Below are positions 15,162 to 64,000 of a stretch of DNA of 64,000 bases, piece after piece. The first letter of the stretch is position 1. Each line of letters starts with the position of its first letter. The position numbers and the translations under genes are program-made. Under the pieces are notes generated by a model. The model did not search any database. It was not told the DNA's origin and was given only the letters and a program-made list of their open reading frames with translations. The DNA is from Mycolicibacterium pulveris (lineage in GTDB: Bacteria > Actinomycetota > Actinomycetes > Mycobacteriales > Mycobacteriaceae), in the NCBI RefSeq assembly GCF_010725725.1, contig NZ_AP022599.1, forward strand, positions 2,542,001 through 2,606,000. The letters run 5' to 3'.

Positions 15162-16745
15162 GTGGGGGTGCGGCGGTTCGGCGTGCTCGCCCTTGTGGCG
15201 GCGAGCGTGTTGGTGTTCGCCTCCGACCTGAGTTCGACCGGCCCGCGCGCGGGCACCATCACCGGGCCGTACGCCTACCTGTTGGCGAGCTCGACCGATC
15301 TGGGGCCGTCCCGTGACGGCGACGCCCAACTGACCCTGGCCCTGCATCGCCGCGACCGGCCGGCCGCGGTGTTCGACTGGGCCGACCGCCACGACCTGTC
15401 CGTCGCGTGGCAGCCGGGGCACAACTGGGCGGTCGTGAAGGGACCGGCACAGCACCTGGCGCACGCGTTCGACGTCGAGGTGCACGACTACCGCGGCAGG
15501 CGCGGGCAGGTGTTCTACGCGTCCCCGCAGCAGCCGCGGGTTCCCGACGCGCTGCGCAGCGACGTCGACGGGCTCGGCAGGATTCTCGGCTATATCCCGC
15601 ACCACACCTCGCACCTGCCGATGGTGCCGTTGGACGTGCCCGACAAGGGGTTGTCACCGGCCGCGCTGAGGCACACCTACAACGTCGACCCGCTGACCGC
15701 CGAGGGCTACACCGGCAAGGGCATCACGATCGTGTTCTTCGCGTTCGACGGCTTCGAGCAGGCCGACCTCGACCTCTTCGCCGACACGTTCGGGCTGCCC
15801 CGGTTCACCCCGGAGGTAATCGGCGGCGAACTCGACGCCCCGCGCGGGGAGACCACCATGGATCTGCAGGTCGCCCACGCCGTCGCGCCCGACGCGCGCA
15901 AGGTCGTCGTCAGCGCCCGCCCGACCGTGGCCGGAGACGGCACGTTCGTCAAGGTCGGGGAGATGTTCGCCGACGCCGACCGGCGATACCCCGGCGCGGT
16001 GTGGAGCCTGTCGATCGGCTGGGGTTGCGACAAGCTGATCACCGCCGCCGACCTCGCGCCGGTGCGGTCGGCGTTGGCGGCCGCGCAGGCCAACGGCACC
16101 ACGGCGTTCAACGCCAGCGGCGACCTCGCCGGGCTGGAGTGCAAGGGCGGCGACGAGTGGTCCGCACCGCCCGGGGAGGACGACATCGGCCTGGACTCGG
16201 TGGCGTCGTTGCCGGAGATCACCGATGTCGGCGGCACGACGCTGTCCACCGACGCCGACGGCCGGTGGCTGGCCGAGCAGGCCTGGTTCGACGTGCCGCT
16301 GTCGGTGGGCACCGGCGGCGGGGTGTCGGCGTTGTTCGACCGGCCCGAATGGCAGCGCGGTGTGCTGCCCGACGAGAGCCCCGACCGCAGGCTGACACCG
16401 GATGTCGCCGCGGTGGCGGACCCGTTCACCGGCGTGCGCATCGTGTTCCAGCAGACCCCGCTCGTCGGCGGCGGCACCTCGCAGTCGGCGCCCATCTGGG
16501 CGGGCTTCGCCGCGGTGATGAACCAGTACCTGCTCGCCAACGGCGGGCAGGCCATCGGTGAGCTCAACCCCAAGCTGTATCGCATCGCGGCGGGCGCGGC
16601 GCTGCCGGCGTTCCGCGACGTGACGCTCGGCGGCAACGTGGTGGCCGACGCGGCGCCGGGCTACGACCTGGCGACCGGGCTGGGCACCCCCGATATCGCC
16701 AACCTGGTGCGTAACCTGTTGGCGTTGCAGGAGTCTGGGGCATGA
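15162..16745 (+). CDS. Secreted S53 (sedolisin/kumamolisin) serine peptidase
   Basis: The 527-residue product has an N-terminal signal/anchor helix (about residues 5-22) and a pro-kumamolisin activation domain (about 40-165). The peptidase domain (about 170-520) has the sedolisin Glu and Asp in GELDAPRGETTMDLQ, the oxyanion Asp in NASGDLAG, and the nucleophile in GGGTSQSAPIWAG. A Ca-site motif near the end reads PGYDLATGLGTP. These enzymes are acid-active endopeptidases that mature by cleaving their own pro-region. GTG start at 15162; a GTG two codons later is possible. The 3' end overlaps the zinc-ribbon gene by 4 bases, which ties the two together. Confidence 0.92.
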   Translation: MGVRRFGVLALVAASVLVFASDLSSTGPRAGTITGPYAYLLASSTDLGPSRDGDAQLTLALHRRDRPAAVFDWADRHDLSVAWQPGHNWAVVKGPAQHLAHAFDVEVHDYRGRRGQVFYASPQQPRVPDALRSDVDGLGRILGYIPHHTSHLPMVPLDVPDKGLSPAALRHTYNVDPLTAEGYTGKGITIVFFAFDGFEQADLDLFADTFGLPRFTPEVIGGELDAPRGETTMDLQVAHAVAPDARKVVVSARPTVAGDGTFVKVGEMFADADRRYPGAVWSLSIGWGCDKLITAADLAPVRSALAAAQANGTTAFNASGDLAGLECKGGDEWSAPPGEDDIGLDSVASLPEITDVGGTTLSTDADGRWLAEQAWFDVPLSVGTGGGVSALFDRPEWQRGVLPDESPDRRLTPDVAAVADPFTGVRIVFQQTPLVGGGTSQSAPIWAGFAAVMNQYLLANGGQAIGELNPKLYRIAAGAALPAFRDVTLGGNVVADAAPGYDLATGLGTPDIANLVRNLLALQESGA

Positions 16746-17938
16746 GCGATCCGGAGCAGGTGCCCACCACGGAGTGTCGGATATGTCAGACCGACGTCCC
16801 CGCGGGCCGGTACTGCGGGCTGTGCGGATGTCATCTGACCCCGCGCCGCGCCGAGGGGCCCGACTGGCTGCGGGTGCGCGACTTCGGCGCCGCCAGAGAC
16901 GAGCATCTGCTCCAGCCGGCGCTGACCAGCTCGCTGTTTCCGCATCTGCCGCAGCGCTCGCGCAGTGCATTCCGGTTGGGCCTCGCGGCGGTGCTGGCCA
17001 CGTTGGTCGCGTTCACGCTGCTTCGCCTGCCCGCCGCGTTGGTGACCGTCGCGGCGCTGGGCCTTCCGGTGTTGTTCCTGCTCTATCTGCGGGAGTCGGA
17101 TGCGTTCCGCGACTTCGGTGTTCGTACCCTGGCCGTCACGACGGTGCTGGGGGTCGGGCTGGGTTTGGGATGGGTGCTGCTGACCGAGGCGACCATCGCC
17201 CGCTCCTACGAACTGGGGCTGACCGGTGGCCCGGACTGGGACCGCATCCTGCGCGACGGCATCGCGGTACCGCTCGGCGGTGTGCTGCTCATGCTGCTGC
17301 CCGCGGTGATCGTGCGGCTGGCGCGGCCGCCGACCCGAGAAGCGTTGGACGGCTTCATCGTCGGTGCGCTCGGCGCGCTCACGTTCACTGCCGCGTCCAC
17401 GTTGGCGCATCTGGCGCCGCAGTTCGGGACGGGGGTGGTGAGCGGGCAGCCGATGGAGAGCCTGTTGGTGGAGGCCGGGATCCGGGGCGTGGCCGAACCG
17501 GTGACGGCGGCCACCGCGGGCGGGTTGATCGGTGCGGCACTGTGGTTTCGGCGTCCCCCGAGCAAGCAGAACCAGCGGCCCGTTCTGGTGCGCGCGGTGC
17601 TCGTCGGGTTCGCGGTCGCGGTGCTGACGGTGTGCCTTGCGCTCGGGGTGATCGATGCCGCCGCGCCCACGCAGCTGCTGATGTTGGGGTTGCATCTGCT
17701 GTTGGCCGCGGTCGCGTTGCTGTTGCTGCGCATCGGAATTCACCTGGCGTTGCTGCATGAGGCGCACGACGAGATCCAGGCCGATGAGCCGCTGCTGTGC
17801 CCACATTGCGGTCATGTGGTGCCCGATATGGCGTTCTGCCCGGCCTGCGGCGTGGCGACCCGCGCGTCGTCACGGTCGTCGCGCCGGTCCCGGCGTGCGG
17901 CACGCCCGGTTCGCGCGGCAGAGCCGGACGCCCCGTGA
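16742..17938 (+). CDS. Polytopic membrane protein with zinc ribbons at both ends
   Basis: The 398-residue protein starts with a zinc-ribbon-like segment (CRICQ...CGLCG, about residues 12-30) and ends with a second (CPHCGH...CPACG, about 355-375) followed by an Arg/Ser-rich tail. Between them are about nine hydrophobic helices, with some resemblance to the PrsW/YhfC type of membrane protein. Both ribbons should be on the cytoplasmic side. Start and stop both overlap neighbours (ATGA with the S53 gene, GTGA with the next), so it belongs to one operon. Function unknown; I see no protease signature that I could defend. Confidence 0.75.
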   Translation: MSDPEQVPTTECRICQTDVPAGRYCGLCGCHLTPRRAEGPDWLRVRDFGAARDEHLLQPALTSSLFPHLPQRSRSAFRLGLAAVLATLVAFTLLRLPAALVTVAALGLPVLFLLYLRESDAFRDFGVRTLAVTTVLGVGLGLGWVLLTEATIARSYELGLTGGPDWDRILRDGIAVPLGGVLLMLLPAVIVRLARPPTREALDGFIVGALGALTFTAASTLAHLAPQFGTGVVSGQPMESLLVEAGIRGVAEPVTAATAGGLIGAALWFRRPPSKQNQRPVLVRAVLVGFAVAVLTVCLALGVIDAAAPTQLLMLGLHLLLAAVALLLLRIGIHLALLHEAHDEIQADEPLLCPHCGHVVPDMAFCPACGVATRASSRSSRRSRRAARPVRAAEPDAP

Positions 17939-18663
17939 GCGCGCCGACGGATCTCTTTCCCGGATACGCGGTTCCGGCCGGCACCTACGCGGCCCCCGCG
18001 CCGCGGCGCACGTCGCGCAGACGGCTGGTGGTGACGTGGTTGCTGGCCATCGTCGTCGTGGCCGCGGGCCTGGTGGCGCTGTCCGCGGCGATCGACAAGC
18101 CCGCCGCACGGTATGTGTGCCCGCCGGACTGCGGACGACCGCCCACCGGCACCCCGGTGGAGGTCAACCCGCGCTTCACCGCACCCGACGGCGCGTTCTC
18201 GGTGAGCCACCCGGTGGAGAGTTCGGCGTATCGCATCACGACCGAACCCAGTGGGGTGACGGCGGAGTTCTTGGCGGGCGACGGCGGCGTGATGCGGTTG
18301 TTCAGCGAGCCGGCGGCCGGCCGATCGGCACAGGAGATCGCGAAAGCATTGGTGAAGGCCACCTTTCCCGACACCCGCACCGCGTACGAGATTCCCAACG
18401 CGATGGTGGGCTATCAGCCCGGCTACGGCGAGGTCGCCGACTGTTGGCCGCAGGGCGCCAACACCAGCTACGCGAGGATGCGGGTGATGGTGATGGCCGC
18501 GGTGAAGAACGATCTTGCGCTGGTGGCCGCCGCGGTGGGGCCCTATCACGAGTTCGGGCCGGACTTCGGATTCGGCAAACCGTCGGGGGCCAATCTCCAG
18601 ATCGCTTTGGATATGGGCAAATACGTCAACAGCTTCAGCTGGCGCGGCGACCCGCCACGGTAG
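17935..18663 (+). CDS. Single-pass membrane-anchored hypothetical protein
   Basis: I take the GTG at 17935 (GTGA overlap with the previous stop), giving 242 residues; an upstream in-frame start would lie inside the zinc-ribbon gene. A short Pro-rich cytoplasmic part is followed by a helix at about residues 30-52. The extracytoplasmic domain has a cysteine pair (VCPPDCG) close to the membrane and a globular part with FSVSHPVESSAYRI. It has no enzyme motif. It is the third gene of the S53 peptidase operon, so it may be a partner or target of that system, which is inference from position. Confidence 0.7.
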   Translation: MSAPTDLFPGYAVPAGTYAAPAPRRTSRRRLVVTWLLAIVVVAAGLVALSAAIDKPAARYVCPPDCGRPPTGTPVEVNPRFTAPDGAFSVSHPVESSAYRITTEPSGVTAEFLAGDGGVMRLFSEPAAGRSAQEIAKALVKATFPDTRTAYEIPNAMVGYQPGYGEVADCWPQGANTSYARMRVMVMAAVKNDLALVAAAVGPYHEFGPDFGFGKPSGANLQIALDMGKYVNSFSWRGDPPR

Positions 18664-18738
18664 ATGTCGCCGAAACGGACGAAATGGTCGATTCGTGGGG
18701 GAGAGAGAACCGACCAAAACGTCGGTCTCGGCGAGCTT

Positions 18739-18843
18739 CTAGACGGCGCCGTTGAACAGGCACAGCCAGGTGACCACCAGCGCGAAGAGCCCGAGCAGGA
18801 TGGTCACGACGAAATGGCGAAGCAGATGAGTCCGGTCTTGCAC
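18739..18843 (-). CDS. 34-residue single-helix membrane protein
   Basis: A GTG start at 18843 and a TAG stop at 18739-18741 delimit a 34-residue frame. It has a basic start (DRTHLLRH) and then about 19 hydrophobic residues (VVTILLGLFALVVTWLCLF) ending in NGAV. Nearly all third codon positions are G or C, as in real genes here. It lies 63 bases downstream of the fusA2 stop on the same strand, so it could be read from the same transcript. There is no clear ribosome site. Function unknown. Confidence 0.45.
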   Translation of the reverse strand: MQDRTHLLRHFVVTILLGLFALVVTWLCLFNGAV

Positions 18844-18866
18844 AGCGCCCGACGGTAGGAACGCCG

Positions 18867-18911
18867 CCTGAGAATGTCCTGACAGCCGCCGCAGAATCCG
18901 CTGTTCTCAGG
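18867..18911 (-). terminator. Stem-loop spanning the fusA2 stop codon
   Basis: CCTGAGAA (18867-18874) and TTCTCAGG (18904-18911) are perfect inverted repeats. Inside them a further short pair (ACAGC with GCTGT, read on the minus strand) allows a longer interrupted hairpin. It includes the fusA2 stop codon and precedes the small ORF at 18739-18843. There is no U-tract, so it may be an mRNA end or processing structure rather than a classical terminator. Confidence 0.35.
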
Positions 18912-21072
18912 CCGACGCCAGGACCTTGGCGGCGGCGTGCTCGGGCATCGGCTCATAGCGGGCGAAAGACCTGGTGAACGACCCGGCGCCGTGGGCCATC
19001 GAGCGCAGGTCGATGGCGTACCTGGTGAGTTCCACCTCGGGGATCTCGGCCCTGACCAGCGTGCGGTCGTCGTCGACCTTCTCGGTGCCCAGCACCCGGC
19101 CGCGACGGCCCGCCAGATCGCCCATCACGGTGCCCACCAGGTCGTCGGGCACCAGCACCGACACCTCGTCGACCGGTTCGAGCAGGTTCACCTTGGTGGC
19201 CGCGGCGGCCTCACGCAGCGCCAATGCGCCGGCCGTCTGAAACGCGAAGTCCGACGAGTCCACGCTGTGCGCCTTGCCGTCGAACAGGGTGACCCGGATG
19301 TCGACGACCGGATAGCCGGCGCCCACCCCCTTCTCCATCTGCGCCCGGATCCCCTTCTCGACGCTGGGAATGAACTGTCGCGGCACCGCGCCGCCGACCA
19401 CCTTGTCGACGAACTCGAACCCCGACCCCTCCGGCAGCGGCTCCACCTCGATGTCGCACACCGCGTACTGGCCGTGCCCGCCGGACTGCTTGACATGCCT
19501 GCCGTGCCCTTTGACCTTGCCGGCGAACGTTTCTCGCAGCGGCACCCGCAGCTCGACGGTGTCGACGGCGACCCCGTAGCGGCGCTGCAGCCCGTCGAGC
19601 ACCACGCCGGCGTGGGCCTCACCCATCGTCCACAGCACGATCTGGTGGGTCTCGCGGTTCTGCTCGATGCGCAGCGTGGGATCCTCGGCGGCGAGCCGCT
19701 GCAACCCGACCGACAGCTTGTCCTCGTCGGTCTTGGCGCGCGGCTGCACCGCGATCGGCAGCAGCGGCTCGGGCATGATCCACGGCTTGAGCACCAGCGG
19801 GTCCGACTTGTCCGACAGCGTGTCACCGGTTTCGGCGCGGCTCAGTCGTCCGATCGCGCAGATGTCGCCCGCGATCACCGACGCCGCGGGACGCTGCTGC
19901 TTGCCCAGCGGGAAGGACAGCGTCCCGATGCGCTCGTCCTCGTCGTGATCTTCGTGGCTGACGGCCGAGCCGTTGTGGCCCGGCTCGCCGAAGAACGACG
20001 TGAAGTGGCCCGACACGTGCACGGTCGCGTCCGGATTGATGGTGCCCGAGAACACCCGCACCAGGCTGACCCGGCCCACGTACGGGTCCGACGTCGTCTT
20101 GACGACCTCGGCCAGCAGCGGGCCCTTCGGGTCACAGGCCAGCCCCTCCCGCGGCTTGCCCTGCGGCGTGAACACCTCGGGCAGTTTGTGTTCGGGCGGC
20201 GGCGGGAAGGCGCTGGTGATGATCTCCAGCAGCTCCTGGGTGCCGACGCCGGTGCCGCTGCACGCCGGGATCACGGGGAAGAAGGAGCCGCGCGCGACGG
20301 CCTTCTCCAGATCGTCGATCAACACCGACTGGTCAATCTGCTCGCCGCCGAGATAGCGCTCCATGAGCGTCTCGTCCTCGGACTCCTCGATGATCCCCTC
20401 GATCAGGGTGCCCCGCATCTCCTCGATCGCGTCGGCGTAAGAGGCGTCGGGCTCGTGGGTATCGGTGCGCTCGCCGTCGGAATACTCGTAGTGCGTCTGC
20501 GTCAGCAACCCGATCAGGCCCGTGCACGGCGAATTCGCGGGCAGATACAGCGGCAGCACCTTGTCCCCGAACGCCTGCTGGATGCCGGCCAGCGCGGTGT
20601 CGTAGTCGGCGCGGGCGTGATCGAGCTTGGTGATCACCACCGCGCGCGGCATGCCGACCTGGCTGCACTCCTGCCACAGCGCTTTGGTCGGCTCGTCGAC
20701 GTGTTCGTTGGCCGCGATCACGAACAGCGCACAGTCCGCGGCGCGCAGGCCGGCGCGCAGTTCACCGACGAAGTCGGCGTAGCCGGGGGTGTCGATGAGG
20801 TTGACCTTGATGCCGTCGTGCTTCAGCGACGCCAGCGCCAGCCCGACCGAGCGCTGCTGGGCGATCTCGGCCTCGTCGAAGTCGCACACCGTGGTGCCTT
20901 CCACGACCGAGCCGGCCCGGTTGAGTACTCCGGAAGCGACGAGCAGGGCTTCGACGAGTGTGGTCTTGCCGCCACCCGATGGGCCCACCAGCACCACGTT
21001 TCGGATGGCGGCCGGACTGTCCGCGGTGGGGGCGGCTCCGGCACCACCGGAAGTTGTCGTCTTGTCAGCCAT
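18907..21072 (-). CDS. fusA2: EF-G-like translational GTPase paralogue FusA2
   Basis: The ATG at 21072, preceded by AGGAGG, gives 721 residues, normal for this paralogue (M. tuberculosis Rv0120c). The GTPase domain is N-terminal: G1 GPSGGGKTT (about 28-36), G3 DTPGYADF (about 94-101), G4 TKLD. EF-G domains II to V follow, with the domain IV pattern near GHGRHVKQSGGHGQYA. In canonical EF-G the G3 box is DTPGH and the His helps GTP hydrolysis; here residue 98 is Tyr. The protein is therefore not simply a second housekeeping EF-G. Its true role is not known to me. A PPOX-type gene lies upstream on the same strand, as in M. tuberculosis. Confidence 0.93.
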   Translation of the reverse strand: MADKTTTSGGAGAAPTADSPAAIRNVVLVGPSGGGKTTLVEALLVASGVLNRAGSVVEGTTVCDFDEAEIAQQRSVGLALASLKHDGIKVNLIDTPGYADFVGELRAGLRAADCALFVIAANEHVDEPTKALWQECSQVGMPRAVVITKLDHARADYDTALAGIQQAFGDKVLPLYLPANSPCTGLIGLLTQTHYEYSDGERTDTHEPDASYADAIEEMRGTLIEGIIEESEDETLMERYLGGEQIDQSVLIDDLEKAVARGSFFPVIPACSGTGVGTQELLEIITSAFPPPPEHKLPEVFTPQGKPREGLACDPKGPLLAEVVKTTSDPYVGRVSLVRVFSGTINPDATVHVSGHFTSFFGEPGHNGSAVSHEDHDEDERIGTLSFPLGKQQRPAASVIAGDICAIGRLSRAETGDTLSDKSDPLVLKPWIMPEPLLPIAVQPRAKTDEDKLSVGLQRLAAEDPTLRIEQNRETHQIVLWTMGEAHAGVVLDGLQRRYGVAVDTVELRVPLRETFAGKVKGHGRHVKQSGGHGQYAVCDIEVEPLPEGSGFEFVDKVVGGAVPRQFIPSVEKGIRAQMEKGVGAGYPVVDIRVTLFDGKAHSVDSSDFAFQTAGALALREAAAATKVNLLEPVDEVSVLVPDDLVGTVMGDLAGRRGRVLGTEKVDDDRTLVRAEIPEVELTRYAIDLRSMAHGAGSFTRSFARYEPMPEHAAAKVLASA

Positions 21073-54607: not shown

Positions 54608-56104
54608 TTATCCGGCTTCACCGTACTCGTCGAACCAGTGGGCGAGCTTTCCGCGACGGCTGACTGCCCGCAGCCTCCGTTCGGTGGCCTCCCGTGTCTT
54701 GCTCGTGGTGACGATGAGCAGTTCATCGCCGATCGCGAGCCGGGTGTCGGGCTGTGGCACGAACGTGTGTCCGTCGCGGATGATCAACGTGATCACGCTG
54801 GGATCGGGTAACCGCAGTTCGCGCACGGTGACATTGTGCAGGCGCGACGGTGCGTGCACCGTCATCGTGAGCAGTTCGGCCTCGAGCACGTCTAGCGGAG
54901 CCGATTCCACCTGAATCTCGCGGGTGGCCTCCTTCGAAATCAGCCCCAACCGTCGGGCCACCAGCCCCAGGCTGGGCCCCTGCACCAGGGTGAACACCAC
55001 GACGAGGATGAACACGATGTTGAGCAGCCGAAGGCTGTCGGGAACTCCGCCGACGATCGGAAACGTCGCCAACACGATGGGTACCGCGCCCCGCAGGCCC
55101 GCCCAGGACACGAAAAGCTGTTCGCGCCAAGGTATTCGGAAACCGGCGAGTGAGATCGCGACGGACAACGGCCGCGCGATCAACAACAGGACAAGCCCGA
55201 TGGCGATCGCGGGCAGCACCTCGGCGGCCAGATCGCCCGGGTCCACCAGCAGACCGAGCAACACGAACAGGCCGATCTGCGCGAGCCAGGCGAGTCCCTC
55301 GGCGAACGAACGGGTAGCCGAGCGGTGCGGGAGCCCCGAATTGGCGAGCACCAGTCCAGCCACGTACGCGGCGAGGAACCCGCTGGCGTGTGCCGCGCCC
55401 GCCGTCGCAAAGGCCACCATGCCGAGGCCGAACGCCGCGAGCGGATACAACCCGGAAGCGGGAAGCGCGATCCGGCGCAGACCGAAAGCACCCACCACGC
55501 CGGCGACCACGCCGATCACGCCCCCTGCGGCCAACTCGTAGGCCACCTCCACGAGCGTGTGCACCGGAGACAGTTCCAGCGGTGCGGCGCTGAACAACAG
55601 CACCAGGATGACGGCCGGGGCGTCGTTGAAGCCCGACTCGGCTTCGAGCAATCCCGCGACGCGGCGCGGCAGGGGCACGACCCGCAGGACCGAGAACACC
55701 GCGGCCGCATCGGTCGACGAGACGATCGCGCCCAGCAGCAACGCCAGTTGCCAGTCCATGTCCAGCAGGAGATGGGCGCCCGCCGCAGTGACGATCATGG
55801 TGACGCCGACGCCGACGGTGGCCAGCACGCCCGCGGGCGCCAAAACCTTGCGGATGTCGGCGAAATGGGTGGTCAGGCCACCCTCGATGAGGATGATCGC
55901 CAGCGCCACAGTGCCCAGATGGTCGGCGAGCAGGTAGTTGTCGAACTGCAGTCCCAGCCCGTCCTCGCCGACGATGACGCCGACGGCCAAGAACAGCAGC
56001 AGGCTCGGTAAGCCGATGCGGCTGGCCGCCCGCGTGGCGACGATACTGGCCAACAGCACGAGTCCACCCGCGAGCAGCACCAGGTACAGCTGATGCAGCG
56101 TCAT
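54608..56104 (-). CDS. NhaP2/CPA-type cation:proton antiporter with TrkA-C domain
   Basis: The ATG at 56104, after GGGGAAGAG, gives 498 residues; an in-frame upstream ATG would add a non-hydrophobic tail. About 12 helices form a CPA-type transport domain with the ion-site motif SSTDAAAVF and ESGFNDAPAV (conserved Asp residues, about 130-180). A soluble C-terminal TrkA-C/RCK domain follows (about 405-485), with a LHNVTVRELRLPDPSV segment that would bind a regulator. K+ or Na+ in exchange for H+ is expected; the ion is not certain. It is divergent from the TrkA-type gene. Confidence 0.9.
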   Translation of the reverse strand: MTLHQLYLVLLAGGLVLLASIVATRAASRIGLPSLLLFLAVGVIVGEDGLGLQFDNYLLADHLGTVALAIILIEGGLTTHFADIRKVLAPAGVLATVGVGVTMIVTAAGAHLLLDMDWQLALLLGAIVSSTDAAAVFSVLRVVPLPRRVAGLLEAESGFNDAPAVILVLLFSAAPLELSPVHTLVEVAYELAAGGVIGVVAGVVGAFGLRRIALPASGLYPLAAFGLGMVAFATAGAAHASGFLAAYVAGLVLANSGLPHRSATRSFAEGLAWLAQIGLFVLLGLLVDPGDLAAEVLPAIAIGLVLLLIARPLSVAISLAGFRIPWREQLFVSWAGLRGAVPIVLATFPIVGGVPDSLRLLNIVFILVVVFTLVQGPSLGLVARRLGLISKEATREIQVESAPLDVLEAELLTMTVHAPSRLHNVTVRELRLPDPSVITLIIRDGHTFVPQPDTRLAIGDELLIVTTSKTREATERRLRAVSRRGKLAHWFDEYGEAG

Positions 56105-56246
56105 CTCTTCCCCGTTCGGGACCGGGTGGCTGGTGCGATGTGCAGTCAACACCTACCACGGCAGTTGGATAAGTCAGTATGAACTGGTGTTCCGCCCCTG
56201 GAAGCGCGCCGCCGAAGCGTCAAGTGGCGCCGAGGAACGCCGGTCG

Positions 56247-56942
56247 ATGCGCATCGGCATCACGGGTGCGGGAGCGGTCGGCCGCTCCGTCGCCCAGGAG
56301 CTGATCGACTACGGGCACAAGGTCTTGCTGATCGAGCACCGAGTCGGGCACTACGAGCCGCACACGGTGCCCGACGCCGACTGGATGCTGGCCGACGCCT
56401 GCGAGCTGGCGGTGCTGCAAGAGGCGGGGATCCAGACCTGCGATGTGGTGATCGCCGCGACGGGCGACGACAAAGCGAACCTGACCACGTCGCTGCTGGC
56501 CAAGACCGAGTTCGGGGTGGCCCGGGTGATCGCGCGCGTCAACGACATGCGCAACCAGTGGTTGTTTACCGAGGCGTGGGGCGTCGATCTCGCGGTATCC
56601 GCACCGGCGGCCCTGGTCGGTGCGATTGAGGGCGCGATCGACATCGGGCATGTGATTCGGTTGATGGAACTGCGGCAGGGTCAGGTCAGCTTGGCCAAAC
56701 TGACGCTGCCCGAAGGGGATCCGTTGGTGGGTCGGCGGATGGCGGAGTTGCCGATGTTGGAGAACAGCGCGCTGGCGGTCGTCATCCGGGAAAGCGGGAT
56801 TGTTGTCCCGACGCCCGACGATGTCCTGGAAGCCGGCGACGAGATGCTCTTTGTCGTCGGCGGCGGCCTGGCGAACCAGGTCTCCGCGCTTGTTCAGGGC
56901 GCCATCGAACCCCTCGGCGACCAGGCTCACCCCGCCGGCTGA
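56247..56942 (+). CDS. TrkA-type potassium uptake regulatory protein
   Basis: The ATG at 56247 gives 231 residues. The N-terminal domain has the NAD(H)-binding glycine motif GAGAVGRSVA (about 7-16) and the Asp/Glu at the end of the second strand (LLIEH). The C-terminal TrkA-C domain (about 140-220) contains LTLPEGDPLVGRRMAELP. It would sense nucleotide and gate a Trk/Ktr-type or antiporter partner. M. tuberculosis has a pair, ceoB/ceoC; only one gene is here. The divergent antiporter with its own TrkA-C domain may be the partner. Confidence 0.9.
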   Translation: MRIGITGAGAVGRSVAQELIDYGHKVLLIEHRVGHYEPHTVPDADWMLADACELAVLQEAGIQTCDVVIAATGDDKANLTTSLLAKTEFGVARVIARVNDMRNQWLFTEAWGVDLAVSAPAALVGAIEGAIDIGHVIRLMELRQGQVSLAKLTLPEGDPLVGRRMAELPMLENSALAVVIRESGIVVPTPDDVLEAGDEMLFVVGGGLANQVSALVQGAIEPLGDQAHPAG

Positions 56943-56975
56943 TCGATTTTCCGGCCTCCGAACTATCTGATAAAG

Positions 56976-57001
56976 TTTTCAACTAATAAATTTGTCGAAA
57001 C
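56976..57001. promoter_or_regulatory. AT-rich imperfect dyad upstream of the ArsR-type gene
   Basis: TTTTCAAC (56976-56983) and GTCGAAAC (56994-57001) form an imperfect dyad (6 of 8 positions) around an AT-rich spacer, within an 80-base AT-rich gap before the first gene of the hyc-like operon. The homologous M. tuberculosis regulator Rv0081 controls its own operon, so an operator is expected here. Confidence 0.35.
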
Positions 57002-57023: not shown

Positions 57024-57359
57024 GTGGAGCCGCTCTACAAGCTCAAGGGTGATTTTTTCAAGACCCTCGGTCATCCGGCCCGTGTCCTGATTCTGGAGCT
57101 GCTGGTCGAAAAGGACCGCTCCGTGGGTGAACTGCAGCCGGAGGTCGGCTTGGAACCCTCGAACCTGTCGCAACAGCTGGGCGTGTTACGTCGGGCCGGG
57201 GTCGTGACGGCCCGCAAGGAGGGCAACAGCGTCATCTACTCCATCGCCTCACCGGACATCGCCGAGCTGCTCGCGGTCGCACGCAAGGTGCTGACCACGG
57301 TGCTCAGTGACCGTGTCGCCGTCCTGGAGGACCTTCGTGCCGACACCGGGGGTGAGTAA
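57024..57359 (+). CDS. ArsR/SmtB-type regulator (Rv0081-like)
   Basis: AGGAG (57013-57017) precedes the GTG at 57024. The 111-residue protein has the winged helix of ArsR regulators: KTLGHPARVLILELLVEKD, recognition helix EPSNLSQQLGVLRRAGVV and wing ARKEGNSVIYSI. The metal-binding CVC motif of many ArsR proteins is absent; there is no cysteine. It corresponds to M. tuberculosis Rv0081, a redox/hypoxia hub that represses its own operon. Its stop overlaps the next ATG by one base. Confidence 0.93.
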   Translation: MEPLYKLKGDFFKTLGHPARVLILELLVEKDRSVGELQPEVGLEPSNLSQQLGVLRRAGVVTARKEGNSVIYSIASPDIAELLAVARKVLTTVLSDRVAVLEDLRADTGGE

Positions 57360-57838
57360 TGAGCTGGCTGCGCAAGATATTTCGCATCGGGCGCATCGTC
57401 GCGCCGAAACCGCCGGCACCGGAGCAGACGGTCGAACCGCCTGCGGGCGTGCGGGGTTCGGTGCAGATCCGCCACGTCGACGCGGGTTCCTGCAACGGCT
57501 GTGAGGTGGAGATCGGCGGAGCGTTCGGCCCGCTCTACGACGCCGAGCAGTACGGGGCACGCCTGGTGGCCTCCCCTCGGCACGCCGACGCCCTGCTGGT
57601 CACCGGCGTCGTCACCCGCAACATGGCCGAACCACTTCGCAACACCGTCGAGGCCACCCCCAAACCGCGGGTTGTCATCGCGTGTGGTGACTGCGCCCTG
57701 AACCGGGGCGTCTTCGCTGACGCCTACGGGGTGGTCGGTGCGGTCGGCGACGTGGTGCCTGTCGACGTCGAGATACCGGGCTGTCCGCCCACCCCCGATC
57801 AGATCGTCGCCGCTCTGCGATCGGTGACCGGCAAGTGA
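57359..57838 (+). CDS. NuoB/HycG-type [4Fe-4S] small subunit (Rv0082-like)
   Basis: The 159-residue protein has the proximal iron-sulfur cluster ligands of complex I subunit B and hydrogenase small subunits: CNGCE (about residues 46-50), CGDCAL (about 106) and GCPPTP (about 140). The CxxC form at the start is that of group 4 hydrogenases rather than the CC of NuoB. It passes electrons between the large subunit and the donor. Start ATG at 57359; end overlaps the next gene by 4 bases. Confidence 0.92.
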   Translation: MSWLRKIFRIGRIVAPKPPAPEQTVEPPAGVRGSVQIRHVDAGSCNGCEVEIGGAFGPLYDAEQYGARLVASPRHADALLVTGVVTRNMAEPLRNTVEATPKPRVVIACGDCALNRGVFADAYGVVGAVGDVVPVDVEIPGCPPTPDQIVAALRSVTGK

Positions 57839-59799
57839 CCGCTACGCTGGCGGCTCCATCAGGGAGCATGCGAAAATCGGTGTCCCGCAGCGGCTTCAGT
57901 GTCACCACAGGACTGAGCACCTCGGCCGTCGGCGCCATCGGGGTGTGGCTGGGCCTGATCGCCGTGTTCGGCCCCGCCCGTGACGTGCGCATCGGCTGGT
58001 TGCTGCCGTTGGCCGGGGTGCAGCTGCACCTTGATCCGCTCGGCGGGTTCTTCATGGCGTTGACCGGCGCGGTCGCGGTGCCGGTCGGAATCTACGCGAT
58101 CGGATACGCACACGAGCTGAGCCGCACCGCGATGACCGTGCTTCCCCTGTTCGTGGCCGCCATGCTGCTGGTGCCCGCGGCGGGTTCGGTGACGACGTTC
58201 TTGTTCGCCTGGGAGCTGATGGCCATCGCCTCGCTGGTCCTGGTGCTCACCGACCACACCCGGCCCCGGGTGCGTTCGGCGGCACTGGTTTACGCGGTGA
58301 TGACCCAACTCGGGTTCGTCGCGATCCTGGTCGGCCTCATGGTGCTGTCCGCGGCGGGCGGCGCGGACCGCTTCGCGGACCTGGGCGGTATGTCCGAAGG
58401 CACGCGGACGACGGTCTTCCTGCTCACGCTCGCCGGCTTCGGCTCGAAGGCCGGTCTGGTACCGCTGCACGCCTGGTTGCCGCGGGCCCACCCCGAAGCG
58501 CCGAGCCCGGTGTCGGCGTTGATGAGCGCGGCGATGGTGAGCCTCGGCATTTACGGCATCGTGCGCATCGACCTGCAGCTGCTCGGACCTGGACCCCGCT
58601 GGTGGGCGCTGACGCTGCTGGCCGTCGGGGCGGCGTCGGCGCTCTACGGCGTGCTGCAGGCTTCGGTGGCGACGGATCTCAAACGGCTGCTTGCGTATTC
58701 GACGACCGAAAACATGGGTCTGATCACCTTGGGGCTGGGTGCGGCGACGTTGTTCGCCGACGCCGGTGCGGGCGCGCCTGCGACGATCGCGATGACCGCG
58801 GCCGTGCTGCATCTGCTCGCGCACGCGGCGTTCAAGTGCCTGGCGTTCTTGGCCGCGGGGTCGGTGCTGTCCGTGACCGGGCTGCGTGATCTCGACCGGC
58901 TCGGCGGGTTGGCGCGGCGGATGCCTGCGACGACCGCGCTTTTCGGCGTGGCGGCCCTCGGGGCGTCCGGGTTGCCGCTCGGCGCCGGGTTCGTCAGCGA
59001 GTGGCTGCTGCTGCAGTCGCTGATCCGCGCACCGGGCAACGACGTGGTGGTCTCGCTGATGGGCCCGCTGGCCATGGGGGCGGTCGCGTTGACGGCGGGC
59101 CTCGGGGTGGCCACCATGGTCAAGGCGTTCGGCATCGGCTTCCTGGCCCGGCCGCGTTCCGAACCAGCGTCCGCGGCAAAGGAATCCCCGCGCACGATGG
59201 TCGTCGCCATGACCATCGCGGCCGTCGGCTGCGCGATGATCGCCGTACTGCCGGGGTTGGTCGCGCCCGCACTGAGACGTGTGCTCGAGACGCTGCCGGC
59301 CGCGAAGAGTGTCGACTTCACCGATTTCGGCATTCTGATCCAACTTCCTGGTGTTCCGGGATCGCTTGCGCCCGCGGTGATCGCCGGCGCGCTCGTGCTC
59401 GCAATCCTGGCCGTGGTGGTGGCCAGCCAGTGGCGATCCCGCCGCCGACCCGCCGCCGAACGGCTACCGTTGTGGGCGTGCGGCGCGGGCGATCTGACCG
59501 CCCGAATGCAATACACCGCAACGTCGTTCGCCGAACCGCTGCAGCGGGTGTTCGACGACGTCCTTCGGCCCGACACCGCCATCGAGGTCACCCCGACCGC
59601 TGAGTCGCGGTACATGGCCGACCGCGTCACGTACCGGAACCGGATCGGCGACGCGATCGAGGAGCGGCTCTACACACCGGTCGTGCGCGCGGTGGCGGCC
59701 GTCGCCGCGGTGGTCCGTCGCGCACACACCGGCAGCGTCCACCTCTACCTCGCCTACGGCGCGCTGGGTGTGCTGATAATCCTGGTGGTGGCCAAATGA
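57835..59799 (+). CDS. HyfB-type antiporter-like membrane subunit (Rv0083-like)
   Basis: The 654-residue protein has about 14-16 helices and the NuoL/HyfB proton-translocation region. It includes the helix 5 Glu in FAWELMAIA, the helix 7 Lys in AGFGSKAGLVPLHAWLPRAHPEAP, and the broken-helix segment LLAYSTTENMG. The C-terminal soluble region is longer than in NuoL. It should pump or conduct protons or Na+ in the complex. GTG start at 57835, overlapping the small-subunit stop. Confidence 0.92.
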   Translation: MTATLAAPSGSMRKSVSRSGFSVTTGLSTSAVGAIGVWLGLIAVFGPARDVRIGWLLPLAGVQLHLDPLGGFFMALTGAVAVPVGIYAIGYAHELSRTAMTVLPLFVAAMLLVPAAGSVTTFLFAWELMAIASLVLVLTDHTRPRVRSAALVYAVMTQLGFVAILVGLMVLSAAGGADRFADLGGMSEGTRTTVFLLTLAGFGSKAGLVPLHAWLPRAHPEAPSPVSALMSAAMVSLGIYGIVRIDLQLLGPGPRWWALTLLAVGAASALYGVLQASVATDLKRLLAYSTTENMGLITLGLGAATLFADAGAGAPATIAMTAAVLHLLAHAAFKCLAFLAAGSVLSVTGLRDLDRLGGLARRMPATTALFGVAALGASGLPLGAGFVSEWLLLQSLIRAPGNDVVVSLMGPLAMGAVALTAGLGVATMVKAFGIGFLARPRSEPASAAKESPRTMVVAMTIAAVGCAMIAVLPGLVAPALRRVLETLPAAKSVDFTDFGILIQLPGVPGSLAPAVIAGALVLAILAVVVASQWRSRRRPAAERLPLWACGAGDLTARMQYTATSFAEPLQRVFDDVLRPDTAIEVTPTAESRYMADRVTYRNRIGDAIEERLYTPVVRAVAAVAAVVRRAHTGSVHLYLAYGALGVLIILVVAK

Positions 59800-60758
59800 G
59801 CCTGATGTCATATCTTGCGGGCGTCGCCCAACTCGCCACCGTCGCCCTGGGTGCGCCGTTGGTGATCGGGTTGATGCGCCAGGTCCGCGCACGCTGGGAA
59901 GGCCGCGCAGGCGCCGGGGTGCTGCAGCCGTGGCGGGATCTGCGCAAACAGCTTGGCAAACAACAGATCACGCCCGAGGGCACCACGCTGATCTTCGCCG
60001 CCGCGCCGTTCGTGCTCGCCGGCACCACGCTCCTGATCGCAGCGATCGCCCCGGTGGTGGCCACCGGGTCGCCGCTTGATTCCAGCGCCGATCTGTTCGC
60101 CGTCGTCGGGCTGTTGTTCCTGGGCACGGTCGCGCTCACCCTCGCAGGCATCGACACCGGTACCTCGTTCGGCGGCATGGGCGCCAGCCGCGAGACCACC
60201 ATCGCCGCTCTGGTGGAGCCGACGATCCTGCTGGCGGTCTTCGCATTGTCGATCCCGGCCGGATCGGCGAATCTGGGTGCACTGGTGGCCAATACGTTGG
60301 ACAACCCGGGCCAGGTGGTGTCGCTGTCCGGTGTGTTGGCGTTCGCCGCGCTGGTGGTGGTGATCATCGCGGAAACGGGCCGGTTGCCGGTGGACAACCC
60401 CGCCACCCACCTCGAGCTGACGATGGTGCACGAGGCGATGGTCCTCGAATACGCCGGGCCGAAACTGGCCCTGGTGGAGTGGGCATCGGCGATGCGGCTG
60501 ACCGTGTTGCTGGCGCTGTTGGCGAACCTGTTCCTGCCGTGGGGAATTGCCGGTGACCAGCCAACCGCACTTGCGGTGGCAGTCGGGGTGGTCGCCGTCG
60601 CGGTGAAGGTCGGGGTGCTGGCGCTGCTGCTGGCCAGCGTCGAGGTGTTCATCGCCAAGTTGCGGCTGTTCCGGGTGCCCGAACTGCTGGCCGGCTCTTT
60701 CCTGCTTGCGTTGCTCGCGGTGACCGCGGCCAGCTTCTTCATGGTGGGGGCCGCATGA
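59796..60758 (+). CDS. hycD: HycD/NuoH-type membrane subunit (Rv0084-like)
   Basis: The 320-residue protein has eight helices and the NuoH/HycD quinone-site-like region, with [26 protein letters not shown] near the start and [18 protein letters not shown] (about residues 190-210) holding the conserved acidic residues. It anchors the soluble arm in the membrane and links the redox reaction to ion movement. ATGA overlaps at both ends. Corresponds to M. tuberculosis hycD. Confidence 0.93.
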
Positions 60759-61417
60759 TCGACTCGAACTTCATCACGCTCATAGGGTTCGCCGCGGGCG
60801 GGCTCACGCTGGCCGCGGTGCTCATCGTGTGGCGGCGTGACCTGCGTGCCATCGTCCGCCTGTTGGCATGGCAGGGCGTGGCGCTGGCCGCGATTCCGGT
60901 GGTGCGCGGTCTGCACGACGCCGAGCTCGCGATGGTGGTGGTCGGCGCCGCGGTGCTGGTGCTGCGCGCCGGGGTGCTGCCCTGGCTGCTCGCCCGTGCG
61001 CTGGCCGCCGAGCAGGAGGCGCAGCGTGAGGCGACCCCGCTGGTGAACACGGCCACCTCGCTGCTGATCGCGGGGGTGTTGACCATCGTGGCGTTCGCGA
61101 TCACCCGCCCGCTGGTCGACCTGGCGCCCGACCCCGTAGTCAACGCTGTTCCCGCGGCGTTCGCGGTGATCCTCATCGCGTTGTTCGTGATGGCAACGAG
61201 GCGACACGCCGTGTCCCAGGCGGCCGGTTTTCTCATGCTGGACAACGGGATAACTGCTGTGGCCTTCCTGCTGACCGCTGGTGTACCGCTGATCGTGGAA
61301 CTCGGCGCGTCGCTGGACGTGCTGTTCGTGGTGTTGATCATCGGGGTTCTGACCGGCCGGTTGCGGCGGGCATTCGGCGGTGCCGACCTCGACCGCCTGC
61401 AGGAGCTGCGGGACTGA
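60755..61417 (+). CDS. hycP: HyfE/HycP-type membrane subunit (Rv0085-like)
   Basis: The 220-residue protein has about six helices and is related to HyfE / NuoK-type subunits, with one conserved acidic helix pattern ([16 protein letters not shown]). It probably forms part of the ion channel beside the larger antiporter-like proteins. Overlaps on both sides (4 bases and 1 base) show tight coupling. The role within the complex is inferred from family and place. Confidence 0.87.
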
Positions 61418-62886
61418 TGACCACACTTCTGCTCGCGCCCGTCCTCGTGCCTGCCGCCGCGGCGGTGGTGAATCTCCTTGCCGGATGGCGGCGTTGGACC
61501 GCGGCGCTGTCGTTGGTCTCGGCCGCCACGGTGCTGGTCTGCGGCATCGTGCTCGCCACCCGGGTCGGTTCGGCCCCGCACTTGGCGCTGGGCGGCCTGC
61601 TGCGCGCCGACGCGCTGTCGGTCACCATGCTGATCGTCATCGGAGTGGTGGCCACCCTGTCGACATGGGCCAGCATCGGCTACATCGGCGCCGAACTCGG
61701 ACACGGTCACACCGACGCCGGCGGCGCCCGGCTCTACGGCGTGCTCACCCCGGCGTTCATCGCGTCGATGGCACTTGCGGTGAGCGCCAACAACATCGGG
61801 GTGATCTGGGTCGCTGTGGAGGCCACCACCGTCGTCACCGCGTTCCTTGTCGGGCACCGCCGCACCCGCGCCGCGCTGGAGGCGACGTGGAAGTACGTGA
61901 TGATCTGCTCCGTGGGCATCGCGGTGGCGCTGCTGGGCACCGTCCTGATGTACTTCGCCGCTCAGCACGCGGGCGCACCGGAGGCGCAGGCGCTCAACCT
62001 AGACGTGCTCGCGGCGTACGCGGCCGGACTCGATCCCGGTGTGGCGCGGCTCGCGGGCGGGCTGCTGCTCATCGGTTACGGTGCCAAAGCCGGCCTGTTC
62101 CCGTTCCACACCTGGCTCGCCGACGCGCACAGCCAGGCCCCGGCACCGGTGTCGGCGTTGATGAGCGGTGTGCTTCTGGCCGTGGCGTTCTCGGTGCTGT
62201 TGCGCATCAAACCGGTCATCGATGCCGCGACCGGGCCCGGCTTCCTGCGCACCGGGCTGATCGTGCTCGGCCTGATGACGCTGCTCATCTCCGCGCTGAT
62301 GCTGGTGGTCACCGGCGACGTCAAGCGCATGCTCGCCTACTCGTCGATGGAGAACATGGGGCTGATCGCGATCGCCGCCGCGGCAGGCACACCGCTGGCG
62401 ATCGCGGGCCTGCTGCTGCACGTTTTCGCCCACGGTGTCGGCAAGACCGTGCTGTTCCTGGCCGGCGGTCAGCTGCAGATGGCGCACGACTCCACCGCGA
62501 TCCGCGACATCAGCGGTGTGGTGCGCCGCTCCCGGATAATCGGCGGGTCGTTCTCGGTCGGATTGATTGTGCTGCTCGGACTGCCACCGTTCGCGATGTT
62601 CGCCAGTGAACTCGCCATCGCGCGCTCGCTCGCCGACGCCGGCTTGGGCTGGGCACTTGCCGCGGCGATGCTCTTGGTCGCGGTCGCGTTCACGGCGCTC
62701 GTGCGCAATTCGGGGCGCATGCTGCTCGGGACGGCACCCGCCGGCGCGCCCGCGATCGCCGTGCCCGGCTCGGTGGCGGCGGCGCTGGTGGTGGGCGTGG
62801 CGGTATCGATCGTCCTTGGTATCACGGCGGGTCCGCTCACGGAGCTGTTCGCCGACGCCGCAACCCTGCTCGGAGGGTTGCGATGA
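61417..62886 (+). CDS. hycQ: HyfF-type antiporter-like membrane subunit (Rv0086-like)
   Basis: The 489-residue protein has about 14 helices. The antiporter core includes the helix 5 Glu in WVAVEATTVVTAFLVGHR, the Lys in YGAKAGLFPFHTWLADAHSQAPAP and the segment MLAYSSMENMG. It is the second antiporter-like subunit of the complex, so the complex could move ions at two sites. It overlaps the large-subunit gene by 4 bases. Confidence 0.93.
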   Translation: MTTLLLAPVLVPAAAAVVNLLAGWRRWTAALSLVSAATVLVCGIVLATRVGSAPHLALGGLLRADALSVTMLIVIGVVATLSTWASIGYIGAELGHGHTDAGGARLYGVLTPAFIASMALAVSANNIGVIWVAVEATTVVTAFLVGHRRTRAALEATWKYVMICSVGIAVALLGTVLMYFAAQHAGAPEAQALNLDVLAAYAAGLDPGVARLAGGLLLIGYGAKAGLFPFHTWLADAHSQAPAPVSALMSGVLLAVAFSVLLRIKPVIDAATGPGFLRTGLIVLGLMTLLISALMLVVTGDVKRMLAYSSMENMGLIAIAAAAGTPLAIAGLLLHVFAHGVGKTVLFLAGGQLQMAHDSTAIRDISGVVRRSRIIGGSFSVGLIVLLGLPPFAMFASELAIARSLADAGLGWALAAAMLLVAVAFTALVRNSGRMLLGTAPAGAPAIAVPGSVAAALVVGVAVSIVLGITAGPLTELFADAATLLGGLR

Positions 62887-64000
62887 GAAGCTATGTACGC
62901 CATCGCATCTCGCGAGAGCTCCTGCGGGATAGGGCCGAGGAGCTCTTCGGGTCGGGATTCCGGCTCGCGCTGGTGGCCGGCCACGACGACGGCGACGGTG
63001 CGCTACGGGCGGTGTACTTGTTCCTCGCCGGTCATCCCGACCGTCGGGTGGAACTCGAATGCGTCCTGCCGCCAGGCGATCCCGAAGTGCCGTCGCTGGC
63101 ATACCTGTCGTTTCCGGCCAGCCGGTTCGAGCGGGAAATGGCCGACCTGTACGGGATCCGCCCGGTTGGACATCCGCGCCCCCGCCGGTTGGTCCGGCAC
63201 GCGCACTGGCCGCAGGATTGGCATCCCATGCGCCAAGACGCCGGCCCGCCACCGGAATTCGAGCCGAGGGGGCGTTTTCCGTTCGTCACCGTGGAGGGTA
63301 CGGGCGTGTACGAGATCCCGGTGGGGCCGGTGCACGCCGGACTGATCGAGCCGGGCCACTTCCGGTTCTCGGTGGTCGGCGAGACGGTGCTGCGGCTCAA
63401 GGCCCGGCTGTGGTTCGTGCACCGCGGCGTGGAGAAGCTGTTCGAGGGCACACCCGCCGACGGGGGAGTGGCGCTGGCCGAACGGGTCAGCGGCGACACC
63501 TCGGCCGGCCACGCGCTGGCCCACAGCCTCGCCGTCGAGGACGCCCTCGGCATCACGCTTCCCGACGCCGCACACCGGCTTCGAGCCCTCGTCGTCGAAC
63601 TGGAGCGGCTCTACAACCACGCCACCGACCTCGGCGCGCTGGCCAACGACGTCTCACTCGGGATCGCCAACACCCACGCGCTGCGGATCAAGGAACGCCT
63701 GCTGCGCCTCAACGCCGAGGTGACGGGCCACCGTCTGCTGCGGGGCGCCATCCGCCCCGGCGGAGTGGTGTTGCGCACGCTGCCCGACCGCGTCGTGCTG
63801 CGGGAAATCGCGGCCGACCTGGCAGAGGTGGCCGAGCTGACCCTGCGCAACAACGTCGTCTACGACCGGTTCGCCGGGACCTCGGTGCTCGCCAAGGACG
63901 ACGCGCGGGCTCTGGGATGTCTCGGCTACGCCGCCAGGGCCAGCGGGGTCCGCACCGATGCCCGCGTCGACCACCCGACCACCGAACTCCCGGTCACCGA
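62883..64000 (+). CDS. hycE: HycE-type large subunit, NuoC-NuoD fusion (Rv0087-like), 3' end missing
   Basis: The gene runs off the window; about 372 residues are visible. The N-terminal ~120 residues match the NuoC 30-kDa domain (SRFEREMADLYGI and HWPQDWHPMRQD). The NuoD/hydrogenase-like domain follows (PVGPVHAGLIEPGHFRFSVVGE). In NiFe hydrogenases the first nickel-ligand motif reads RxCGxC; here the segment is ERVSGDTSAGH, with Ser203 and Thr206 where the cysteines should be. So at least half the NiFe site is absent. The second motif would lie beyond base 64000. The protein should act in electron transfer or quinone-type chemistry, not H2 turnover. Confidence 0.93.
   Translation, partial: MRSYVRHRISRELLRDRAEELFGSGFRLALVAGHDDGDGALRAVYLFLAGHPDRRVELECVLPPGDPEVPSLAYLSFPASRFEREMADLYGIRPVGHPRPRRLVRHAHWPQDWHPMRQDAGPPPEFEPRGRFPFVTVEGTGVYEIPVGPVHAGLIEPGHFRFSVVGETVLRLKARLWFVHRGVEKLFEGTPADGGVALAERVSGDTSAGHALAHSLAVEDALGITLPDAAHRLRALVVELERLYNHATDLGALANDVSLGIANTHALRIKERLLRLNAEVTGHRLLRGAIRPGGVVLRTLPDRVVLREIAADLAEVAELTLRNNVVYDRFAGTSVLAKDDARALGCLGYAARASGVRTDARVDHPTTELPVT

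What the first reader, a model, noticed from the sequence alone, without database searches (positions are those of the whole stretch)
57024..64000. hyc-like operon encodes an Ehr-type complex without the first NiFe cysteine pair
All membrane and electron-transfer subunits of a group 4 hydrogenase-like complex are present and their cluster or ion-path motifs look intact. In the large subunit the L1 motif RxCGxC is ERVSGDTSAGH (Ser203 and Thr206 in place of Cys). Proteins lacking these ligands are known as energy-converting hydrogenase-related (Ehr) complexes, with unknown substrate. No ferredoxin-like subunit or formate dehydrogenase gene is in the operon part that is visible. An ArsR regulator without cysteines controls it, so the inducing signal is also open.
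Basis: partly seen in the sequence, partly recalled or inferred. Interest (0 to 1): 0.75.

Follow-up and report, generated by a model that had tools for sequence, protein, structure and literature searches.

The report
Hydrogenase-like pump without its metal site
A mycobacterial gene cluster that resembles a hydrogen-making membrane enzyme has lost every residue that would hold the nickel-iron centre, so it is a complex I-like membrane machine of the little-understood Ehr family, already recognised in the tuberculosis bacterium, and some distant relatives seem to have lost their electron-carrying centres as well.

Summary
Window 57024-64000 carries ArsR plus six hydrogenase/complex I-like subunit genes. 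Read past the window end, the large subunit (492 aa) lacks both Ni-Fe cysteine pairs, not only the first: RVSGDTSAGH and terminal NKSFNLSYAGNDL, no tail. 42 of 42 mycobacterial loci examined agree; none of 120 listed homologues has CGxC/CYxC. 11 of 60 tested carrier Mycobacterium genomes lack HypD and HypF, so no Ni-Fe site is expected there. The identity is not new: PMC6728331 already calls the M. tuberculosis orthologue EHR and not a functional hydrogenase. New to me: in 80 named loci the pocket switches as one unit (CxxC with ELCYxC, or SGx with xSYxG/A; one intermediate), while the membrane arm barely changes. 14 of 62 non-mycobacterial Cys-less loci also lost the [4Fe-4S] ligands of the NuoB-like subunit, and five of these lie beside F-type ATP synthase genes. 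Mycobacteria keep that cluster (42 of 42), so my best reading is a one-cluster, electron-driven ion pump; a machine that needs no electrons is the boldest reading left open. Nothing was measured.

The parts
56964..56984 (+). Conserved element TATCTGATAAAGTTTTCAACT upstream of arsR, candidate promoter/operator
   Evidence: Read; a similar TGATAAAkTyTTCAAyT-like stretch seen by eye in 13 of the 14 mycobacterial upstream regions printed (not in L129). No exact 7+7 inverted repeat here. Function inferred.
57024..57359 (+). ArsR/SmtB-family regulator without cysteine, orthologue of Rv0081 (orthology inferred)
   Evidence: Pfam HTH_5 39.2 bits, NCBIfam HTH_metalloreg 81.4 bits over cut-off; 0 Cys in 41 of 42 mycobacterial copies and 9 of 9 distant ones
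57359..57838 (+). HyfI/HycG/NuoB-like small subunit (EhrS) with one [4Fe-4S] site: C45, C48, C112, C142
   Evidence: Oxidored_q6 106.1 bits; alignment to E. coli HycG and P. furiosus MbhJ; CCCC in 42 of 42 mycobacterial loci
57835..59799 (+). HyfB/HycC/NuoL-like antiporter-type subunit; E127, K205, H330, K334, E389, C549
   Evidence: Proton_antipo_M 188.9 bits; alignment to 7z0s_C; E127, K205, H330 and K334 invariant in all six groups compared, E389 at least 94%, C549 variable outside mycobacteria
59796..60758 (+). HyfC/HycD/NuoH-like membrane anchor; E228 separates SGD-type from four-Cys complexes
   Evidence: NADHdh 136.6 bits; 7z0s_D 144.8 bits
60755..61417 (+). HyfE-like membrane subunit (EhrC)
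   Evidence: NCBIfam PRK11492 58.4 bits, below its cut-off of 136; present in 42 of 42 mycobacterial loci
61417..62886 (+). HyfF-like antiporter-type subunit; E135, K224, H339, K343
   Evidence: Proton_antipo_M 150.5 bits; best solved match MBS subunit 6u8y_H
62883..64000 (+). HycE/NuoCD-like large subunit (EhrL), part inside the window; the gene runs on to window-equivalent 64361
63480..63512 (+). Former L1 Ni-Fe motif, ERVSGDTSAGH (S203 and T206 in place of Cys)

Best explanation
It is an Ehr complex: a six-subunit member of the complex I / group 4 hydrogenase superfamily whose large subunit has no Ni-Fe site, so that it should not make or use H2 (shown by sequence; identity about 0.97). How it most likely works (inferred, about 0.45): a small low-potential carrier such as a ferredoxin docks on the exposed face of HyfI, where HycF sits in formate hydrogenlyase; one electron at a time passes to the single [4Fe-4S] cluster (C45, C48, C112, C142); the acceptor, most likely menaquinone or another small oxidant, binds in the remodelled pocket under the cluster, lined by E156, S203, D205, R433, N484, S486, D491 of HycE and perhaps E228 of HyfC; its reduction moves the beta1-beta2 loop and the HyfC carboxylate chain and drives ion translocation through HyfF and HyfB. 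ArsR turns the operon on under a signal that is probably not a metal bound by cysteine, in M. tuberculosis linked to hypoxia.
Against: No donor gene is in the operon, and by crude ORF clustering no neighbour outside the block recurs in more than 15 of 42 loci. The quinone residues of complex I are not there: T. thermophilus H38 aligns with I155 and Y87 with G204 (residue roles from PMC7684303, passages), and the canopy Asp529 of HycE, said to be strictly conserved in complex I, is N484 (PMC9474812, passages). Fourteen relatives with the same pocket have no complete set of cluster ligands. Nothing was measured.
Confidence: 0.5

Rival explanations
1. Non-redox machine: the SGD/NKSFNxSYxGNDL pocket does not use electrons. 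The complex is an ion-translocating device (for example Na+ or K+/H+ exchange, or ion movement coupled to hydration, hydrolysis or binding of a small solute in the pocket); the cluster, where kept, is structural or a redox gate.
For: 14 of 62 non-mycobacterial SGD-type loci have a NuoB-like subunit with at most one of four cluster cysteines (TCDD, DCDD, DTDN, SEGD, TEGN) but the same HycE pocket, and 13 of the 14 have all six subunits (L172 is cut by its contig); four of these NuoB-like proteins were scanned and all hit Oxidored_q6. All 20 four-Cys loci keep CCCC. Five cluster-less loci lie beside or between F-type ATP synthase genes. In this window a K+/H+ antiporter and a TrkA-type protein flank the operon.
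Against: All 42 mycobacterial loci keep the four cluster cysteines. K+/H+ antiporter and TrkA genes are beside the operon in only 6 of 42 mycobacterial loci. Cluster-less relatives may have changed function; most are metagenome bins.
Confidence: 0.22
2. Disulfide or polysulfide reductase working at the proximal cluster, like P. furiosus MBS.
For: MBS is a neighbour in the superfamily that lost two of the four Ni-Fe cysteines and reduces polysulfide at its proximal cluster (PMC7684303, passages); HyfF's best solved match is MBS subunit 6u8y_H; the intermediate L152 keeps two cysteines, as MBS does.
Against: MBS works because one cluster iron has no cysteine; here the CxxC spacing and all four ligands match MbhJ and HycG. 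E156 of the beta1-beta2 loop is kept, while MbhL E21 is reported absent in MBS, although PMC9474812 notes one acidic residue on that loop of MbsL.
Confidence: 0.1
3. Part of a formate dehydrogenase-Ehr chain (formate to quinone or protons).
For: FDH-Ehr was proposed for other phyla (PMC6349859, passages) and Ehr subunits are more abundant with formate than with hydrogen in Geobacter sulfurreducens (PMC7894505, passages).
Against: No ferredoxin-like ORF by motif scan near the operon; no FDH gene seen in the operon, and no neighbour recurs beyond 15 of 42 loci by crude clustering. FDH elsewhere in the genome was not searched.
Confidence: 0.08
4. True [NiFe]-hydrogenase or formate hydrogenlyase, as annotated in M. 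tuberculosis.
For: Subunit homology to Hyc/Hyf; called a putative [NiFe]-hydrogenase complex in PMC6901956 (passage).
Against: No ligands, no tail, no HypD or HypF in 11 of 60 tested carriers.
Confidence: 0.01
5. Decaying remnant of a hydrogenase.
For: Loss of catalytic ligands.
Against: Open frames and a fixed new motif in 42 of 42 loci, dN/dS 0.15-0.26, spread over bacteria and archaea.
Confidence: 0.01

Closest known systems
Ehr (energy-converting hydrogenase-related) complexes, including the M. tuberculosis Rv0081-Rv0087 locus
   Same: Same subunit set, no Ni-Fe ligands; the M. tuberculosis locus has this gene order as recalled and as listed in PMC6901956 (passage), and is already called EHR in print (PMC6728331). 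Nitrospira moscoviensis (L150) and archaeal Nitrososphaeraceae/Thaumarchaeota records (L161, L133) share the SGD motif.
   Different: Nothing defining. The mycobacterial form has a Cys-free ArsR and no ferredoxin subunit.
E. coli formate hydrogenlyase / hydrogenase-4 (HycE, HyfG and partners)
   Different: All four Ni-Fe cysteines, canopy Asp529, C-terminal tail, HycF and HycB equivalents absent.
P. furiosus MBS (sulfane sulfur reductase)
   Same: Complex I-like machine that moved away from Ni-Fe.
   Different: MBS keeps two Ni-Fe cysteines and has a three-Cys cluster; here none of the former and four of the latter.
Four-Cys EhrL (Desulfotomaculum, Negativicutes, Bryobacterales records here; D. 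ruminis Desru_3264 in PMC3569383)
   Same: Same NKSF family motif and nearly the same membrane arm; 5 of 20 share the ArsR neighbour.
   Different: CxxC/ELCYxC pocket instead of SGx/xSYxG.
Respiratory complex I
   Different: Quinone residues H38/Y87 not conserved; no N-module or NuoI gene in the operon.

Membership tests
Ehr complex | Subunits homologous to group 4 hydrogenase / complex I, with antiporter-like subunits | tested here: met
Ehr complex | Large subunit lacks the Ni-Fe-coordinating cysteines | tested here: met
   S203, T206, S486, G489
Ehr complex | No hydrogenase activity; couples a cytoplasmic reaction to charge movement | not testable with these tools
   Needs biochemistry
Group 4 [NiFe]-hydrogenase / FHL | L1 CxxC and L2 CxxC ligands | tested here: not met
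   0 of 4 ligands (last column extended by eye); 42 of 42 mycobacterial loci without them
Group 4 [NiFe]-hydrogenase / FHL | C-terminal tail after L2 (4a type) | tested here: not met
   Ends ...GNDL; the six group 4a relatives carry a tail. Removal of the tail in maturation is recalled
Group 4 [NiFe]-hydrogenase / FHL | Hyp maturation machinery in carrier genomes | tested here: not met
   HypD absent in 11 of 60 tested carrier Mycobacterium genomes, HypF in the same 11 (in three of them only 150 of 181-188 HypF candidates were scored). The window's genome has both, near its other hydrogenase
Group 4 [NiFe]-hydrogenase / FHL | HycF/NuoI-like two-cluster subunit | tested here: not met
   No CxxCxxCxxxC stretch on the operon strand near the operon. 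Motif scan only; an unlinked gene elsewhere was not searched
MBS sulfane sulfur reductase | Proximal cluster with three cysteines from a shortened loop | tested here: not met
   CxxC spacing and four ligands as in MbhJ/HycG
Complex I | Quinone head-group residues (T. thermophilus H38, Y87) | tested here: not met
   Aligned with I155 and G204

The most novel reading that the evidence does not exclude
The Cys-less Ehr branch is a non-redox offshoot of complex I: an ion-translocating machine whose peripheral arm keeps the hydrogenase fold but performs a reaction without electrons in an SGD/NKSFNxSYxGNDL pocket. In some lineages every recognised redox centre has gone (no Ni-Fe, no complete proximal-cluster site) and the machine's genes sit with those of the F-type ATP synthase; the mycobacterial Hyc complex would be a member in which the last cluster survives as a structural or sensing part.
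Probability: 0.2. Interest if true: 0.9.

Novelty: new member of a known kind. Interest (0 to 1): 0.45.

Why it matters
M. tuberculosis carries this operon under a hypoxia-linked regulator (PMC6901956, passage), and hycP/hycQ were reported as needed for optimal growth (PMC2799521, passage), yet some papers whose passages I saw still describe it as a putative hydrogenase or formate hydrogenlyase. Showing that both ligand pairs are gone, that carriers without HypD/HypF keep it intact, and that the switch is confined to a few residues, mainly at the old Ni-Fe pocket, makes the question sharp: what replaced H2 chemistry? The relatives with no recognised redox centre, five of them beside ATP synthase genes, offer a way to ask whether a complex I-type machine can run without electrons at all.

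Tried and rejected
Sequencing error or pseudogene: rejected by 120 listed homologues, 42 loci and dN/dS. Hydrogenase/FHL: rejected. Partner gene by neighbourhood: none found. In the 42 mycobacterial loci the most frequent cluster outside the block (15 of 42) is a minus-strand ORF overlapping HycE, read as a shadow frame; the next is in 11 of 42. My ORF callers are crude and missed real subunits, so subunit presence was taken from tblastn. In some searches the best tblastn hit was taken per subunit, so where a gene lies off the contig a paralogue can stand in (L172: HyfB is off its contig, so its HyfB row can only be the HyfF paralogue).

K+/H+ antiporter and TrkA as a functional partner: beside the operon in only 6 of 42 mycobacterial loci, so not general. 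DosR box (consensus recalled): 0 matches in the window with up to 3 mismatches. Inverted-repeat operator: none with exact 7-base arms upstream of this arsR. Paper searches on Ehr with complex I terms gave mostly unrelated hits. Most subscription journals are not in the library; He et al. 2011 was not held, and Marreiros et al. 2013, which named Ehr, was seen only as a citation.

Tree direction (four-Cys ancestral or not) is unresolved: 5 changes between the two states on a quick tree with 35 of 112 inner branches open.
Full report
What is there. The window lies at 2542001-2606000 of a one-contig 5.48 Mb genome. Its named closest homologues are Mycobacterium/Mycolicibacterium proteins, so I treat it as a Mycobacterium. 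From 57024 a regulator and six subunit genes follow on the + strand with overlaps or gaps of a few bases: ArsR, HyfI/NuoB-like, HyfB, HyfC, HyfE, HyfF and a HycE/NuoCD-like fusion that starts at 62883 and, read beyond the window, stops at window-equivalent 64361. This is the order of M. tuberculosis Rv0081-Rv0087 as listed in PMC6901956 (passage) and as I recall it.

Independent test of 'no hydrogenase'. HypD, needed for the Fe(CN)2CO unit (recalled), is missing in 11 of 60 tested carrier Mycobacterium genomes, and HypF is missing in the same 11 (in G317, G357 and G457 only 150 of 181-188 first-look candidates were scored). These 11 genomes are listed as 99-100% complete. The other 49, the window's genome included, have HypD; here HypD and HypF lie close to another large-subunit hydrogenase gene at 124 kb. 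Median pairwise dN/dS for the seven genes is 0.15-0.26 over 824-861 pairs with dS below 1.5 (pairs are not independent).

What is already known. PMC6728331 (passage read) says that the M. [quoted passage not shown] PMC3569383 (passage) says that in most Ehr complexes the Ni-Fe cysteines are absent and that one in Desulfotomaculum ruminis has all four. PMC10284858 and PMC10432482 (passages) report Ehr in Nitrospira and ammonia-oxidising archaea with unknown function. PMC3087520 (passages) lists Rv0082-Rv0087 as horizontally acquired.

Two pocket states. The scan is biased: one of its two patterns, NKSFN[LQ]SY, fits only the Cys-less state, so the proportions mean little. By motif, 15 have CxxC in L1 and all 15 have ELCYxC in L2; 64 have SGD (60), SGT (3) or SGV (1) and all 64 have xSYxG or, in L170, xSYxA; one (L152, SGIC with ELSYAC) keeps one cysteine in each. 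No other mixture occurs among the 80. Adding the unnamed loci, 112 SGD-type and 20 four-Cys complexes differ cleanly (at least 85% against at most 10%) at eight HycE positions (198, 203, 205, 256, 484, 486, 489, 492), one in HyfI (63) and two in HyfC (214, 228), and at none in HyfB, HyfF or HyfE. The pump seems to have stayed while the chemistry at the pocket changed. On a quick tree of 115 rows (12 of the 42 mycobacterial ones), with the motif columns left out, cysteine against no cysteine needs 5 changes; deep branches are weak.

Stepwise loss of the electron path. Ferredoxin-like motifs fused to the small subunit were found in 10 of 20 four-Cys loci and 6 of 71 SGD-type loci, and a separate ferredoxin-like ORF nearby in 4 more SGD-type loci (domains confirmed in L045 and L173). 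Most SGD-type loci, mycobacteria included, show only the proximal cluster. In 14 of 62 non-mycobacterial SGD-type loci with a small subunit found, at most one of the four cluster cysteines remains (TCDD 6, DCDD 3, DTDN 3, SEGD 1, TEGN 1); 47 have CCCC and one (L179) PCCC. Among the other Cys-free pocket types L057 and L058 read DEDS and DDDS, L049 and L050 CCPS, L060 CCCN, L052 CCCC. Four-Cys loci keep CCCC in 20 of 20. NuoB was not found in 7 of 140 loci searched. All six subunits are recognisable in 13 of the 14 (L172 is cut by its contig), the pocket motif is the same, and key membrane residues are kept (E127, K205, H330, K334 of HyfB in all 16 cluster-less rows, L057 and L058 included; the L172 row can only be its HyfF paralogue). 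Most of these loci come from metagenome bins. In five of them (L148, L157 Magasanikbacteria, L166, L171 Moraniibacteriota, L177 Daviesbacteria) atpD and atpC, and in four also atpG, lie directly upstream (L148, L157, L166, L171) or on both sides on the other strand (L177); no other of the 140 loci scanned has atpD at E 1e-10 (families confirmed on representatives). Chance placement of all five among 16 of 140 would be 1e-5, but the loci are related and of unequal length, so this is only a guide.

Mechanism. Since mycobacteria keep the cluster in 42 of 42 loci, I favour a one-cluster redox pump with a soluble donor and a small acceptor, most likely menaquinone, in the changed pocket. The complex I quinone residues are absent (H38 aligns with I155, Y87 with G204) and the canopy Asp of HycE is N484, so the acceptor site would be new. 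The alternative that the pocket works without electrons is supported by the cluster-less relatives and is my novel case. An MBS-like reductase is less likely because the cluster has four cysteines with hydrogenase spacing.

Regulation. It has no cysteine in 41 of 42 mycobacterial copies and in those 9 distant ones, so a thiol or cysteine-metal signal is unlikely. A conserved AT-rich stretch lies 40-60 bases upstream of its start.

Noticed in passing
L148, L157, L166, L170, L171, L172, L177, L180, L181, L189, L190, L195, L047, L048: Ehr operons whose NuoB-like subunit lost three or four cluster cysteines, i.e. complex I-like complexes with no recognised redox centre; among them five records titled as candidate-phyla bacteria (Magasanik-, Levy-, Moranii-, Davies-, Staskawiczbacteria), one Methanosarcina and one Altiarchaeales.
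   Followed up: partly
L148:684-2686, L157:1-3114, L166:1-2214, L171:163-3153, L177:1848-2276 and 15181-19417: F-type ATP synthase genes directly beside these cluster-less Ehr operons.
   Followed up: partly
   Followed up: no
L051, L053, L054 (genomes G191, G083, G223): Four-Cys, tail-less large subunits in genomes where HypD and HypF were not found: a possible four-Cys site without Ni-Fe maturation.
   Followed up: partly
L152:4406-5824: Intermediate with one cysteine left in each motif (SGIC / ELSYAC); MBS also keeps two of the four.
   Followed up: no
window 54608-56942: Divergent K+/H+ antiporter (NCBIfam PRK05326 over cut-off) and TrkA-type protein beside the operon; the pair is beside it in 6 of 42 mycobacterial loci.
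   Followed up: partly
L129 (G376:C3:471081-472535): One same-genus genome has a divergent copy (65% identity) that groups with L043 and Nonomuraea rows rather than other mycobacteria (support 93 and 90), suggesting a separate transfer.
   Followed up: no
L190:3874-19293: A second set of Ehr membrane-subunit genes follows the first operon in tandem in an Altiarchaeales record, cut by the end of the stretch.
   Followed up: no
L003:10286-14920: 1544-aa protein with repeated VCBS/cadherin-like stretches (by eye) downstream of the operon.
   Followed up: no
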